A DNA stretch of 64,000 nucleotides from Bacteroidota bacterium (GTDB lineage: Bacteria > Bacteroidota > Bacteroidia > UKL13-3): positions 1 to 64,000 of the forward strand of contig CANGVA010000005.1 of assembly GCA_947457395.1 (NCBI GenBank), given 5' to 3'. A program made the translations under genes and the position numbers. The notes below the pieces were generated by a model. The model searched no databases. It worked only from the letters and a program-made list of their open reading frames with translations, and was not told the DNA's origin. Of the stretch, positions 5,676-38,343 are shown piece after piece (position 1 is the first letter of the stretch; every line of letters starts with the position of its first letter).

Positions 5676-6863
5676 TTAATACAAAAACCCAAACAACCAC
5701 AAGGGTATTTTATTTTCAAAACCATACTCCAACATATCAGCTGCGATATAGCTATTCTTAACAGCTTTGATTTGTTTTTTGCCTTTGGTTTTGCCCCCCA
5801 CTTCAAAGGTGTATTTCCCTTCTACTAAAAAATCGCCTTGCGGGCTGTAGGAAACTTTGTAAACATTGTTTACCTGGTTATAGAAAAAGGTTTCACGTTC
5901 ATTGCCTTTGTTCAATGCCACACTTCCTATGGCATGCAATAAATTAGGATGATGCAAGTACACCTTTTCCGGCTTGGCCAATAGCGCATCGCTGCTGGCT
6001 TTGCTGCGCAATAAGTTAAGTAGTTTTGATTCTTCTAAATAATTTAAATACAACATCACCGTATTACGCGAAGTTTCTATATCTGCCGCCAATTGGGATA
6101 CGTTGGGTTGAAACGGAACCGATTGAGAAAGCATATACAGCAATTTTTTTAGCTTGTGTATATACTTCACTTCTACATGGCGCAAATAAGGTAAGTCCAC
6201 TTCCAGCATCAGGTTAATGGTGTTTAACAATTTGCGATGATAGGTAGTGGTGCTTTCTAAGTAAAACGGATAGTAACCATATTTAAGGTAGTTATCAAAA
6301 TAGGCCAAGGGCTTAACCTTTGAAACGATTTCTTTACAAATGGATAGATGATTTTTTACCAACTCTTCCAAGGTAATTTTTTCAAAGGTTGTTCCTGCTT
6401 CAATATTTAAAAATTCTCTGAATGAAAGTCCTTCCATATTGTACACAACAGCTCTTCTACTCAGATCAGCATTACCGCTCTGTATATGCAAAACCGATGA
6501 GCCGGTAAATACAACCTTGAGCTTTTTATAACGGTCGTAAATGTTTTTGAGCTCTTGCGACCAATTGGGATATTTATGAATTTCATCCAAAAATAAATAG
6601 GAACCACCTTTTTTTACCCATTCGTCAGCCAATTGGAGTAAGGGCACTTCACTAAAATAGAAATCATCCATACTGGCATACAATACATGAGGCGAGTTTT
6701 TTAATTGCTCTTTGATGTGCGTGAGTAAAAATGTGGTTTTTCCCACACCCCTTGCCCCGGTTAAGCCTATTAAACGGTCGTTCCAGTCTATATTCAAATT
6801 TCTGCGAAATTTGATTTCAAGTTGAGCCAATTGCCTGTTATGTGCTTCTAATAGCGATTCCAT
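5676..6863 (-). CDS. AAA ATPase with DUF4143-type C-terminal region
   Basis: 395 residues. Walker A GARGVGKTT (about 36-44), Walker B YLFLDEIH (about 89-96) and the sensor-like VVFTGSS (about 117-123) identify an AAA_14-type ATPase. The middle carries the usual SFREFL motif and a winged-helix-like segment; the C-terminal part has strands GDFLVEGKYTFEVGGKTKGKKQI, reminiscent of the PD-(D/E)XK-like domain seen after DUF4143. These proteins occur singly in many bacteria, often in variable regions, and their substrates are unknown. The gene is alone, with an intergenic gap on both sides. Its promoter is unusually clear (6881-6910). Transfer between strains is plausible but not shown. Confidence 0.85.
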   Translation of the reverse strand: MESLLEAHNRQLAQLEIKFRRNLNIDWNDRLIGLTGARGVGKTTFLLTHIKEQLKNSPHVLYASMDDFYFSEVPLLQLADEWVKKGGSYLFLDEIHKYPNWSQELKNIYDRYKKLKVVFTGSSVLHIQSGNADLSRRAVVYNMEGLSFREFLNIEAGTTFEKITLEELVKNHLSICKEIVSKVKPLAYFDNYLKYGYYPFYLESTTTYHRKLLNTINLMLEVDLPYLRHVEVKYIHKLKKLLYMLSQSVPFQPNVSQLAADIETSRNTVMLYLNYLEESKLLNLLRSKASSDALLAKPEKVYLHHPNLLHAIGSVALNKGNERETFFYNQVNNVYKVSYSPQGDFLVEGKYTFEVGGKTKGKKQIKAVKNSYIAADMLEYGFENKIPLWLFGFLY

Positions 6864-34238: not shown

Positions 34239-34685
34239 ATGGCAAAACATTTTTTTACTACTGCAGAACAAAACGGCATTATTGAAGCCATAAAGCAGGC
34301 CGAACTAAATACATCCGGAGAAATACGTTTGCATATTGAGGCCCACTGCAAAACAGATGCGTATGAACGCGCACGGCAGGTGTTTGAACAATTGGGCATG
34401 CATGCAACCGATCAGAAAAACGGAGTGCTTTTTTATGTAGCCTATAAAGATCATAAACTTGCCATACTTGGAGATAAAGGTATTCACGAAAAGGTAACGC
34501 AACAGTTTTGGGAAGAAGAAAAAGAATTGCTTCGCAGTTATTTTAAACAAAATAAATATGCCGAAGGACTGACAATAGCCATTAACAAAGCCGGAGAAAA
34601 ATTACAAGCATATTTCCCTTATCAGAAAAATGATACCAATGAGTTGAGCAATGATATTTCTTTTGGAGGAGGTAAAAATGCGTAA
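34239..34685 (+). CDS. TPM domain-containing protein
   Basis: 148 residues. A single TPM domain (PF04536 type): ITEAIKQAELNTSGEIRLHIEAHC..., FEQLGMHATDQKNGVLFYVAYKDHKLAILGDKGI and a helical C-terminal part. No signal peptide, so probably cytosolic or peripheral. The strong purine-rich sequence GGAGGAGGT near its end is the ribosome site for the next gene. Its own start lies only 7 bases after a terminator, so a promoter may overlap the hairpin (TTATTTTG at 34230-34237). Confidence 0.88.
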   Translation: MAKHFFTTAEQNGIIEAIKQAELNTSGEIRLHIEAHCKTDAYERARQVFEQLGMHATDQKNGVLFYVAYKDHKLAILGDKGIHEKVTQQFWEEEKELLRSYFKQNKYAEGLTIAINKAGEKLQAYFPYQKNDTNELSNDISFGGGKNA

Positions 34686-35439
34686 AATTTACCTGCTTCT
34701 AACCACGCTTTTTTTAACGGCAACCTTGCCAATGCAAGTGTTGGCAAAAGATATTCCGGCTAAGCCCAATCCTCCCCGACTGGTTAATGATTACACCCAA
34801 ACTCTTAGCACTGCAGCGCAACAACAACTGGAGCAAAAACTGGTAGCATATTTCGATTCGACCTCTACGCAAATTGCCATTATTATTGAACAATCCTTAG
34901 ATGGTGATGATTTGTTTGACTACTGCCAGCGCCTGGCAACCGGCTGGGGTATTGGAGAGCAAAACAAAAACAACGGATTGCTTATTTACATTGCCTTAGC
35001 CGACAGAAAAATCAGGATACATACAGGATATGGGATGGAGGCCACCATTACGGATGCACTTTCCAAACGTATTATTGAAAAAAATATCAAACCCAATTTT
35101 AAGGCTGGCAATTATTATCAGGGGTTGGATGAAGCAACCGACATCATTATTCAAGCTGCTTCCGGAGAGTATGAGTATGACCGAACACAAGGCAATGAGC
35201 CAAATACAAAGGCAATACTGAAGATAATCTTCATCATTATTATCATCATAATTGTGATTTCTAAATTTGGTGGAGGCCGCGGAGGCAGAAGAGGCAGCGG
35301 ATTTGGCGGACCCATATTTTGGGGTGGCACATTTGGTAGCGGTGGTTTTTCATCCGGTGGAGGAGGTTTTGGTGGCGGTGGGTTTGGCGGCTTTGGTGGC
35401 GGAGGATTTGGCGGAGGCGGCAGCAGCGGAAGCTGGTAG
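34678..35439 (+). CDS. Exported TPM domain protein with glycine-rich tail
   Basis: 253 residues from the ATG at 34678, overlapping the previous gene by 8 bases with a strong Shine-Dalgarno (GGAGGAGG), so the two are translationally coupled. Signal peptide (MRKIYLLLTTLFLTA ... QVLA), TPM domain (about 30-170; TSTQIAIIIEQSLDGDDLFDYCQRLATGWGIG, DRKIRIHTGYGMEATI), one transmembrane helix (IIFIIIIIIIVISKF) and a Gly/Ser/Phe-rich tail of about 55 residues ending GGSSGSW. YgcG-like. TPM phosphatase activity is known for a plant relative; bacterial function is unclear. Confidence 0.9.
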   Translation: MRKIYLLLTTLFLTATLPMQVLAKDIPAKPNPPRLVNDYTQTLSTAAQQQLEQKLVAYFDSTSTQIAIIIEQSLDGDDLFDYCQRLATGWGIGEQNKNNGLLIYIALADRKIRIHTGYGMEATITDALSKRIIEKNIKPNFKAGNYYQGLDEATDIIIQAASGEYEYDRTQGNEPNTKAILKIIFIIIIIIIVISKFGGGRGGRRGSGFGGPIFWGGTFGSGGFSSGGGGFGGGGFGGFGGGGFGGGGSSGSW

Positions 35440-35538: not shown

Positions 35539-35594
35539 AAACTGCTCAAAGCTATATAGCCACATCTCCAATTTTATAATGAGTTAAACACAAA
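35539..35594 (+). repeat. Direct repeat copy 1 flanking the accessory islet
   Basis: 56 bases, starting AAACTGCTCAAAGCTATATA, with a near copy at 37406-37460. The shared core is a palindrome GCTATATAGC plus CAATTTTATAATGAGT, identical in both. Apart from about six scattered mismatches and one length difference the copies agree throughout. Neither copy lies in a gene. The 339-base gap 35440-35778 otherwise shows only the hairpin at 35706-35752. Confidence 0.75.
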
Positions 35595-35705
35595 TGGTGT
35601 CCAAGGTGTTCAATATCTCTTATACTATATAGAAAGGGTAGATTCAATGTGGGACGATTGATTAAAACGAAAATGGGATATTTGGTTTATTCACATAAAC
35701 TAGAA

Positions 35706-35752
35706 ATCCTTGGTTTCCATAAAAAATTATCATTTGAATGAAAACCAAGGAT
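35706..35752 (-). terminator. Stem-loop after the islet operon
   Basis: An 11-base stem (ATCCTTGGTTT with AAACCAAGGAT), extended by a looser CAT/ATG pairing, with a long AT-rich loop. It lies 27 bases beyond the stop of the 67-residue gene on the minus strand, with only a short U-run (TTTCTAG) after it, so it may be a weak terminator or an RNA structure. Confidence 0.5.
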
Positions 35753-35778
35753 AAAATATGATATGTATAGCCATTAAT

Positions 35779-35982
35779 TTAAAAAAATAGATTAAAAGAT
35801 TCTAATATGTAGAATATCAATCCAAAAATTACAAAGAATAACCCAAATAAGTATAATATTTTTTTTACGTTAAATTCTTTTTCTTTAGCATAATCATTAT
35901 ACAAACTAACTGTAGCTATACAGAGAAGAAGAATTAGCGGTATTTTAAAAAGTATAATTTTATAGATCATAGAACTAAACAT
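35779..35982 (-). CDS. Small two-helix membrane protein (islet)
   Basis: 67 residues. Two hydrophobic helices (IILFKIPLILLLCIATVSLY and ILYLFGLFFVIFGLIFYILE) joined by a short charged loop (NDYAKEKEFNVKK). No family recognised. Its ATG overlaps the stop of the upstream gene by one base (TGATG), so it is translationally coupled to the exported glycine-zipper protein. Size and topology resemble immunity proteins of class II bacteriocins, but there is no sequence proof of that. Confidence 0.55.
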   Translation of the reverse strand: MFSSMIYKIILFKIPLILLLCIATVSLYNDYAKEKEFNVKKILYLFGLFFVIFGLIFYILESFNLFF

Positions 35983-36770
35983 CAGTCATTAGCTGTCCAT
36001 AAGGAAAAAGAATATTTTAAGATATTCAGTGAATGTCTCATTATCAGTTTCTCCTCTTCACTAAAATTATTACTAATGCTTACTAGACTAATTTCAGAGT
36101 TAATGTAGGCCAAACCACTTTCTATATTTTTGTTTTCCAGACCTAATAATGTATTCAAAACTCTTTTATATTCATCACTTAAACGAGTGTTTCCATAATC
36201 TTCTGCAATCATGTTTGCGTGATCATTGATCGATGTATTAATCCCCATTGGAGTAATTAGTTGAATTAATTTCGCCTTTGTATACTGTTGTTTAATTTCA
36301 TTTATACTTAAATGAAACTCATTGGATAAAAATGTACAAAGTGGCTCGTACAAAGCGTCAATGTAGCTCTCAGGAGTTCTATAACCTTGCCCAGAATTAT
36401 TGATAAAGTTCACTAAAAAGGTATTATGAAGATAGCCTGACCTTTCAAATTCGTTCATATATGAAATAGTTTGTGGGTTAGCAGGAGGAATTACCGGTCG
36501 TAATAGTCCACCTGGATTATGCCTTTCCATGTAAAGCCATCCAGATGCAGCACAACCATCTACAACTATACCAAGAGCCATTCCATGAGCTCCGCCAATC
36601 CTTCCCCATTTATATCCTTGATAAGATCCGCCAACATCCGCGCCTAGATAAGTTCCAAGTGTTATCCAATTTATCATTGGCTTACTTTTATTATAGTATG
36701 ACGCCTGATTGCTTGCGTCTAAATTCGCAAAGACTAATAAAGTTGTAATAACTAAAAGATATTTTCTCAT
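35982..36770 (-). CDS. Exported glycine-zipper protein (islet)
   Basis: 262 residues from the ATG at 36770 (the frame extends to 36788 but the signal peptide MRKYLLVITTLLVFANLDAS starts here). After the signal peptide comes a stretch rich in small residues (LGTYLGADVGGSYQGYKWG, then GGAHGMALGIVVDGC) resembling glycine-zipper membrane segments of bacteriocins and colicin-like toxins. The remaining 180 residues are soluble and mostly helical, with no recognised domain. Codon use and base composition look more AT-rich than the neighbours. Coupled to a small membrane protein downstream and divergent from an XRE regulator, all between direct repeats. Toxin-like function is inference. Confidence 0.6.
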   Translation of the reverse strand: MRKYLLVITTLLVFANLDASNQASYYNKSKPMINWITLGTYLGADVGGSYQGYKWGRIGGAHGMALGIVVDGCAASGWLYMERHNPGGLLRPVIPPANPQTISYMNEFERSGYLHNTFLVNFINNSGQGYRTPESYIDALYEPLCTFLSNEFHLSINEIKQQYTKAKLIQLITPMGINTSINDHANMIAEDYGNTRLSDEYKRVLNTLLGLENKNIESGLAYINSEISLVSISNNFSEEEKLIMRHSLNILKYSFSLWTAND

Positions 36771-36911
36771 ATTGATATGTCTTCCCATTGCACAACATGT
36801 GCAACTTTGTGCTTTACAAATCTGATAGTATTTATTTAGTATTTTAACTGCTAATATAATTGTTTCAATTGTTAAAACTTTTTTTTAATTTGTTTTACAA
36901 TTAATAAGTTT

Positions 36912-37295
36912 ATGGTATTGGATAGTACTAAAATAAAGAAAGCAAGAGGAAGAGCCAAACTTTCACAAACTGACCTTGGCTTTTTAATCGATGTATCTCA
37001 AACAACGATTTGGGAATGGGAACAAAAAGACCATGATGTAAAGTTAGATTATATTCTAGCGATAAGTGAGTAATTAGACTTAGACCTGCAAGATTTGTTA
37101 AAGGATGGAACAACAATTAATATTCAGCATAATCACAACAACAAAGTAAGCAACAACTCAGCTCCTTGCATGAATATTACAATTGAATCATACCAATTGC
37201 AACAAGAGTTGATACAAGTACTCAAACATAATATTGAGCTGCTAAGAGAAGAGAACGCAAAACTGAAGCAAGATTTAAAGAAAATTAATAATTAG
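36912..37295 (+). pseudogene. XRE-family regulator interrupted by an in-frame stop
   Basis: The ATG at 36912 starts a helix-turn-helix domain (KIKKARGRAKLSQTDLGFLI, then SQTTIWEWEQ) that ends at TAA 37071-37073 after 53 residues. The same frame continues without any shift as LDLDLQDLLKDG, a linker and a coiled coil (QLQQELIQVLKHNIELLREENAKLKQDL) to the TAG at 37293. The sequence around the stop (LAISE-stop-LDLDLQDLLKDG) reads as an XRE domain whose glutamine- or glutamate-type codon became TAA. So the full-length gene of about 127 residues is broken by one base change; the HTH fragment alone might still be made. Reinitiation at a TTG near 37095 is possible. Confidence 0.7.
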
Positions 37296-37405
37296 TCCCC
37301 TTTCCACAAGCCCTGAGTACTTAGTTCTATGAGCGAGTTAAACCTCGTTGAAATACCTAAAGAACTTACAATAATGATTAGCCTTGAATCTATTAATTAA
37401 TCCAC

Positions 37406-37460
37406 AAACTGCTCAACGCTATATAGCAGCAACACCAATTTTATAATGAGTAACCACAAA
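37406..37460 (+). repeat. Direct repeat copy 2 flanking the accessory islet
   Basis: 55 bases, AAACTGCTCAACGCTATATA onward, matching copy 1 at 35539-35594. Together they enclose the XRE pseudogene, the exported protein and the small membrane protein. The rest of the 328-base gap 37296-37623 shows no gene, terminator or promoter I can support, only AT-rich sequence. Confidence 0.75.
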
Positions 37461-37623: not shown

Positions 37624-38343
37624 ATGCTCGAACAGCTTGACCTTACTAAAATACTGGTGCTCGATATTGAAACGGTACCTCAACAACCCGGGTTTGATTC
37701 ATTACCTGAAAAATGGAAAAGCCTTTGGGAGAAAAAAGCCGCATTTCTTAAAAAACAGGAAAATGAATCGGCTGCCGAAATATATAACCGTGCAGGTATT
37801 TATGCAGAGTTTGGTAAAATCATTTGCATATCTGCCGGATTTTTTAACAGAAGCGGCAATAGCTGGCAGTTTCGGGTAAAATCATTTTATGGCGAGGATG
37901 AAACAATTGTATTAAAAGAATTCAATACCCTACTGGAACGTTATTTCAATCAGCCCGACCATTTATTGTGCGGCCATAATGCCAAGGAGTTTGACTTCCC
38001 TTACCTGTGCAGGCGCATGCTCATTAACGGTATTTCCATTCCTTCTATTCTTAATATTGCAGGAAAAAAGCCATGGGAGGTGCAACACCTCGATACGATG
38101 GAATTATGGAAGTTTGGCGACTTTAAAAGTTTTACTTCACTTGAATTACTTGCCACCACATTTAATATTCCAACACCTAAGGATGACATTGATGGAAGCA
38201 TGGTTTGGAAAGTTTTTTGGCAAGAAAACAACCTTGAACGTATTGCAAGCTATTGCCAGAAAGATGTGGTAACAGTTGCACAGCTTTTGCTTCGTTTCAG
38301 AGGCGAAAAACTGTTAGAGGAGTCAGACGTTATATTTTCTTAA
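37624..38343 (+). CDS. PolB-like 3'-5' exonuclease domain protein
   Basis: 239 residues from the ATG at 37624 (a TTG at 37603 would add seven residues). A DnaQ/DEDD-type exonuclease related to the proofreading domain of family B polymerases (PF10108 type): exo I LDIETVP (D and E metal ligands), exo [14 protein letters not shown] (Asp), exo III YCQKDV (Tyr/Asp). No polymerase domain, so a stand-alone nuclease that trims DNA or RNA 3' ends. Ends 12 bases before pdxJ; the two are likely cotranscribed. Confidence 0.9.

What the first reader, a model, noticed from the sequence alone, without database searches (positions are those of the whole stretch)
35539..37460. Repeat-bracketed islet with an exported glycine-zipper protein, coupled membrane protein and broken XRE regulator
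Seen: two 55-base direct repeats enclose about 1.8 kb of AT-rich DNA with a signal-peptide glycine-zipper protein, a one-base-overlapping two-helix membrane protein, and a divergent XRE gene. Known: bacteriocin-like toxins and their small membrane immunity partners are often arranged this way, with an XRE regulator. Inference: a candidate contact- or secretion-dependent effector/immunity cassette, mobile between repeats. I do not recognise either protein.
Basis: partly seen in the sequence, partly recalled or inferred. Interest (0 to 1): 0.65.

Follow-up and report, generated by a model that had tools for sequence, protein, structure and literature searches.

The report
XRE-controlled secreted-protein islet in Bacteroidota
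A 1.8-kb piece of foreign-looking DNA has been inserted between two housekeeping genes of an uncultured Bacteroidota bacterium, bringing a switch gene (now broken) and a pair of genes for an exported protein and a small membrane partner that resemble nothing known; related bacteria put different exported proteins under the same kind of switch, as expected of weapons or surface factors that are swapped quickly, but no toxic activity has been shown.

Summary
In detail: two direct repeats (55 bp, 88% identical, the only copies in the 2.54-Mb genome) bracket ~1.8 kb of the most AT-rich DNA in the window. It holds a 262-aa signal-peptide, GxxxG-rich protein, a 67-aa two-helix membrane protein (TGATG overlap) and a divergent XRE gene stopped at codon 54. 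Neither cargo protein has a convincing homologue in any library or genome set searched. The XRE gene does have relatives: in all six closest cases with readable context (window included) it is divergent from a signal-peptide gene. In two genomes the same site beside prmC carries unrelated cargo between 90–93% identical outer flanks. So this is a horizontally acquired, XRE-linked exported-protein islet of a recurrent, cargo-swapping type. An effector/immunity role is the best single guess (~0.4) but rests on architecture only; a non-toxic surface factor or decaying DNA remain possible. How it inserted is unresolved: no integrase, no attC-like fold, no tRNA. The broken regulator may leave the pair constitutive or decaying.

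The parts
35539..35594 (+). direct repeat copy 1 (left junction of the islet)
   Evidence: aligns with the single copy in sister genome G001, 39/57 columns
37406..37460 (+). direct repeat copy 2 (right junction); 49/56 identical to copy 1
   Evidence: 41/57 columns against G001
35982..36770 (-). 262-aa exported protein: signal peptide (residues ~1-20), GxxxG-rich segment 39-67, predicted helical C-terminal half; no homologue found
35779..35982 (-). 67-aa two-helix membrane protein, translationally coupled (TGATG) to the 262-aa gene; no convincing homologue
35706..35752 (-). 20-nt inverted repeat just after the 67-aa gene, possible operon terminator
   Evidence: I1, 85% complementary
36912..37073 (+). 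XRE/HTH_3 regulator, divergent from the operon, stopped at codon 54 (TAA 37071-37073)
37074..37295 (+). in-frame remainder of the XRE gene (end of HTH and C-terminal tail), out of reach unless the stop is read through or translation restarts at TTG 37095
36771..36911 (.). 141-bp divergent promoter region; contains TTGCACA-ACA-TGTGCAA (36788-36804), a possible operator (weak; motif not shared with relatives)
34678..35439 (+). left flank: TPM-domain protein (LemA-TPM-TPM gene cluster), conserved neighbour
37624..38343 (+). right flank: PolB-type 3'-5' exonuclease gene followed by pdxJ, conserved neighbour

Best explanation
A horizontally acquired islet inserted, after the split from the sister species, into the TPM-exonuclease intergenic region, leaving the target sequence duplicated on both sides (supported by the empty site and repeat comparison). 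It carries a regulated exported-protein module: an XRE regulator reading away from a two-gene operon for an exported GxxxG-rich protein and a coupled small membrane protein (shown by sequence). Most likely mechanism (inferred): the 262-aa protein is exported through Sec and acts on the envelope of competing cells, with the glycine-rich segment inserting in or oligomerising at a membrane; the 67-aa membrane protein protects the producer or assists export; the XRE normally represses the divergent operon and is now truncated, so the operon may be constitutive or controlled by a weaker HTH fragment. Islet origin and module architecture: about 0.9. Toxin/immunity function: about 0.4, which is the confidence given below.
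For: Empty site with one repeat copy in G001, flanks aligned across the junction; TPM-exo adjacency without islet also in G009 and G007. The two repeats resemble each other (49/56) more than either resembles G001 (39/57, 41/57), so the duplication is probably younger than the split. Lowest G+C of the window. TGATG coupling, two helices, signal peptide, seven GxxxG. Closest XRE relatives: all six with readable context (window included) are divergent from a signal-peptide gene, against a loose 39% of window genes having such an N-terminus in any orientation. Second genes in G043, G047 and G015 carry thioredoxin-like domains. G043 and G051: same site beside prmC, outer flanks 93% and 90% identical, XRE 51% over 83 residues, cargo without mutual BLAST hit at E<1; rapid cargo turnover is typical of antagonism or surface factors (general knowledge). 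A more distant XRE relative in G439 is divergent from a double-glycine-type peptide gene and next to a C39-peptidase-like transporter start, as in a bacteriocin locus (read from sequence, not tested with a profile).
Against: No homologue of either cargo protein, so no functional transfer. The structure model is unusable (pLDDT 43) and Foldseek found nothing at E<=0.001. No delivery gene in the islet. Other cargoes in the wider XRE set include ordinary exported proteins such as a metallopeptidase-like one in G013/G022, so the regulator family is not specific to toxins. Exported proteins are common in these genomes, so the association is an enrichment, not exclusive.
Confidence: 0.4

Rival explanations
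1. A non-toxic regulated surface or secreted factor (adhesin, aggregation or envelope-modifying protein) whose small membrane partner helps export or anchoring; the XRE controls it in response to stress or phase, and cargo turnover reflects escape from phage or predators.
For: XRE relatives also stand divergent from metallopeptidase-like and other ordinary exported proteins; in G043, G047 and G015 the second gene is a thioredoxin-like protein, suggesting folding or maturation partners rather than immunity.
Against: The window partner is a bare 67-aa two-helix protein with no redox domain, closer in form to immunity proteins; unrelated cargo at one site is more usual for antagonism.
Confidence: 0.3
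2. Decaying passenger DNA: a once functional module whose regulator has been broken and which has no present role.
For: In-frame stop in the XRE gene; 12% divergence between the repeat copies; no relatives conserving the cargo.
Against: The 262- and 67-codon frames and their coupling are intact although AT-rich DNA closes frames quickly (300-codon open frame against at most 140 in shuffles).
Confidence: 0.17
3. A phage- or satellite-derived cassette (superinfection exclusion or lysogenic conversion genes under a repressor).
For: XRE scores on phage repressor families; exported and membrane proteins are common conversion genes (general knowledge).
Against: No match of the 262-aa protein in phages, none to that protein or the repeat in viral contigs, significant PHROGs hits only to the HTH, no integrase or structural gene; XRE relatives lie in non-phage context.
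Confidence: 0.08
4. Ancestral islet lost from the sister species by recombination between the two repeats, rather than gained here (a rival on origin only, compatible with any function).
For: One repeat copy would remain after such a deletion, as seen.
Against: G009 and G007, other genera, also have TPM-exo adjacency without islet, and the two repeats are closer to each other than to the G001 copy.
Confidence: 0.08

Closest known systems
Cdz contact-dependent glycine-zipper bacteriocins of Caulobacter (eLife 2017, PMC5380434)
   Same: Glycine-zipper (GxxxG) protein, small transmembrane partner in the same operon, reported patchy distribution and horizontal acquisition, divergent gene arrangement.
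   Different: Cdz toxins are 84-86 aa with RTX-like leaders and are secreted by an adjacent type I system cdzAB; here 262 aa with a Sec-type signal, no transporter in the islet, XRE regulator; no sequence relation was found or tested directly.
Bacteroidetocins and other double-glycine-leader bacteriocins with C39 ABC transporters (PMC6671954 for bacteroidetocins, abstract only)
   Same: Bacteroidota antagonism peptides; an XRE relative in G439 (L150) stands beside a locus of the double-glycine type.
   Different: No double-glycine leader, C39 peptidase or ABC transporter here; the protein is far larger.
XRE-linked exported Cys-containing proteins of the same taxonomic family (G043, G051, G047, G015, G020; L117-L121)
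   Same: Homologous XRE (28-47% identity), divergent operon starting with a signal-peptide gene, followed where readable by a partner gene, lodged among unrelated housekeeping genes.
   Different: Cargo unrelated: Cys-rich proteins with thioredoxin-like partners in G043, G047 and G015; a two-Cys GxxxG protein and a 67-aa membrane protein here. No bracketing repeats comparable to the 55-bp pair were found around L117, L118, L120 or L121.
Integron gene cassettes and small integrase-less genomic islets
   Same: Small cargo DNA bracketed by short repeats, empty site with one copy.
   Different: No attC-like fold, no integrase, only one islet, repeat not dispersed.

Membership tests
Repeat-bracketed genomic islet | direct repeats at both ends and an empty site with one copy in a relative | tested here: met
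Repeat-bracketed genomic islet | recombinase or integrase, or use of a tRNA/RNA gene as target | tested here: not met
   no such gene among the islet ORFs; no tRNA or credible RNA family at the site; typical of such islands but not required of all
Cdz glycine-zipper bacteriocin | glycine-zipper motif | tested here: met
   GxxxG starting at 39,43,48,52,56,59,63
Cdz glycine-zipper bacteriocin | adjacent type I secretion genes | tested here: not met
   islet ORFs and flanks LemA/TPM and exo/pdxJ
Cdz glycine-zipper bacteriocin | small (about 5-10 kDa) toxin with RTX-like N-terminus | tested here: not met
   262 aa with a hydrophobic Sec-type N-terminus; definition from PMC5380434
Cdz glycine-zipper bacteriocin | small membrane protein that gives immunity | not testable with these tools
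   67-aa two-helix protein is present; function needs an experiment
Double-glycine bacteriocin (bacteroidetocin type) | double-glycine leader and C39 ABC transporter | tested here: not met
   islet ORFs
Type II toxin-antitoxin | cytosolic toxin with adjacent HTH antitoxin in one operon | tested here: not met
   exported protein, divergent HTH gene; no PADLOC hit for the cargo
Integron cassette | attC site folding as a hairpin on one strand | tested here: not met
   DNA folding of both repeats no better than shuffles, z 0.27 and -0.34
XRE-linked exported-protein module of this taxonomic family | homologous XRE divergent from a signal-peptide gene | tested here: met

The most novel reading that the evidence does not exclude
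The islet is one member of an undescribed, order-wide set of XRE-linked 'secreted cargo plus partner' modules in uncultured Bacteroidota, in which the regulator is kept and the exported cargo with its partner is repeatedly replaced at fixed sites; an interbacterial competition system with orphan toxins exported through Sec.
Probability: 0.2. Interest if true: 0.62.

Novelty: new variant of a known kind. Interest (0 to 1): 0.4.

Why it matters
If the cargo is antagonistic, a small regulator family would serve as a handle for finding orphan secreted effectors in uncultured Bacteroidota that homology searches cannot see: look divergent from the XRE gene. The insertion with a clean empty site gives a defined before/after pair, and the G043/G051 site a case of cargo exchange between conserved flanks.

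Tried and rejected
Homology of the 262-aa protein: Pfam, NCBIfam and PADLOC gave nothing; PHROGs and PDB sequence search gave only chance-level hits; GTDB genome and viral peptide-pattern scans, plasmid and phage tblastn empty; class search hits at E 2e-4 to 0.5, of which the best three were inspected (L064 a serine-hydrolase-like ORF, L065 without a plausible matching gene, L066 antisense to an OmpA-type ORF), judged chance. The peptide-pattern scans reach close relatives only. 67-aa: only weak hydrophobic hits (DUF1600 E=0.004, SLATT_4 E=0.05, below cut-offs) not accepted; loose genome hits at E 9e-4 to 0.05 not followed. Single-sequence structure (pLDDT 43) and Foldseek uninformative. Repeat as attC-like hairpin, tRNA or RNA target, dispersed repeat or viral sequence: rejected. 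Longer duplication to the left of copy 2: only suggestive. Shared operator motif among XRE modules: none apparent. Bracketing repeats at the other XRE modules: none comparable found. The 249-aa protein found beyond the XRE cargo in four relatives gave no match in the window's genus (without a positive control). Literature searches for such XRE-exported-protein islets found nothing directly relevant.

Full report
Observation. The two direct repeats, the AT-rich interior, the 262-aa and 67-aa coupled genes and the divergent, interrupted XRE gene are all there. Copy 1 is 35539-35594, copy 2 37406-37460, 49 of 56 alignment columns identical with one gap. No other copy exists in the window or in the 2.54-Mb genome. 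The interior G+C is 31.3% against 38.9% for the window, 3.8 s.d. below the mean. The 262-aa frame is embedded in 300 open codons; 1000 Markov shuffles never exceeded 140. The junction reads GAC TGA TG TTT, a one-base stop-start overlap.

The insertion. In the only other genome of the genus found here (G001, L005) the TPM-domain gene is followed by the exonuclease gene and pdxJ with a short intergenic region and no islet. Joining the window's outer flanks gives a continuous alignment with that region, including one copy of the repeat. Two genomes of other genera (G009, G007) also show TPM next to the exonuclease gene without islet. The repeats match each other at 49/56 columns but the G001 copy at only 39/57 and 41/57, so the duplication most likely arose in this lineage after the split. 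Outside the 55-bp core the inner sides do not resemble the outer flanks (only a weak hint on the left of copy 2). The insert carries no recombinase; the repeats do not fold, are not in a tRNA or RNA gene and their core is absent from viral contigs. Integration by a recombinase acting in trans and repair-type insertion with target duplication are both open. A 12% difference between the copies argues against recent mobility.

The cargo. Neither protein matches any family accepted at its cut-off. The 262-aa protein matches no plasmid or phage record, no viral or GTDB contig by peptide pattern and no PDB sequence beyond chance. In the 64 genomes of its order and 395 of its class, only chance-level hits appeared; the best three were inspected and are unrelated genes or antisense frames. 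Sequence features: signal peptide, seven GxxxG between residues 39 and 67, helical C-terminal half in a low-confidence model; two-helix 67-aa partner.

The regulator is the informative part. Read through its stop, it has relatives within the taxonomic family, with an XRE domain and a C-terminal extension. In each of the six closest cases whose upstream side is not cut by a contig end (window, G051, G015, G043, G020, G047) the gene is divergent from a signal-peptide gene. In G043, G047 and G015 this exported protein has 6-8 Cys and the next gene is a thioredoxin-like protein (for G015 by 38% identity to the G047 protein). G043 and G051 occupy the same place beside prmC: outer neighbours 93% and 90% identical, XRE 51%, cargo without any BLAST match at E<1. 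So the regulator and site are kept while cargo is replaced. More distant relatives are often divergent from exported proteins too, and one stands beside a double-glycine-type peptide gene and a C39-like transporter start (read by eye); others serve ordinary exported proteins, so the link is to export in general and only sometimes to antagonism. My signal-peptide test is a heuristic with a 39% background in window genes; the six close cases are few and related, and several relatives were part of the query alignment, so I treat this as strong support for the architecture and weak support for the toxin reading.

Function. The most probable single mechanism is an XRE-regulated exported effector with a membrane partner that protects the producer or assists export; about 0.4. 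Shown: islet and empty site, architecture, coupling, GxxxG segment, regulator family context. Predicted: signal peptide and membrane helices. Inferred: regulation by the XRE, membrane activity, immunity, competition. The broken XRE suggests that the operon is now unregulated or that the module is decaying; an assembly error at one base cannot be excluded.

Comparison. It works, at most, like Cdz (glycine zipper plus small membrane immunity protein; PMC5380434) but fails that family's size, leader and type I secretion tests, and it is not a double-glycine bacteriocin, a type II toxin-antitoxin system or an integron cassette. It is best filed as a new variant of horizontally acquired, XRE-linked exported-protein islets, with orphan cargo.

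Noticed in passing
L150 (G439:C447): XRE relative divergent from a 116-aa peptide gene with a double-glycine-like (CVHGG) leader and next to a C39-peptidase-like transporter start: a probable bacteriocin locus.
   Followed up: partly
L117 and L118 (G043, G051), beside prmC: Same site and related XRE, but unrelated exported cargo between outer flanks 90-93% identical: apparent cargo exchange.
   Followed up: yes
L118:6377-6449 and 6540-6612: 73-nt block repeated (79%) between the XRE gene and the exported-protein gene, one copy with TATCAG...CTGATA; possible duplicated operator.
   Followed up: no
L117:2924-4368, L118:8674-10178, L119:588-1701, L120:3716-4826: Conserved pair (123-144 aa and 222-251 aa exported proteins, the latter with a VECPIYKCN motif) at the far side of the cargo in four genomes of two genera; the 249-aa one was not found in the window's genus.
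   Followed up: partly
L131 and L134 (G022, G013): More distant XRE relatives divergent from a metallopeptidase-like exported protein and followed by a glycosyltransferase-like and an ABC-transporter gene.
   Followed up: no
L118:9061-9174: Four copies of a 34-nt repeat spaced 26-27 nt apart between genes.
   Followed up: no
window 35706-35752: 20-nt inverted repeat after the 67-aa gene, terminator-like but without a clear T run.
   Followed up: no
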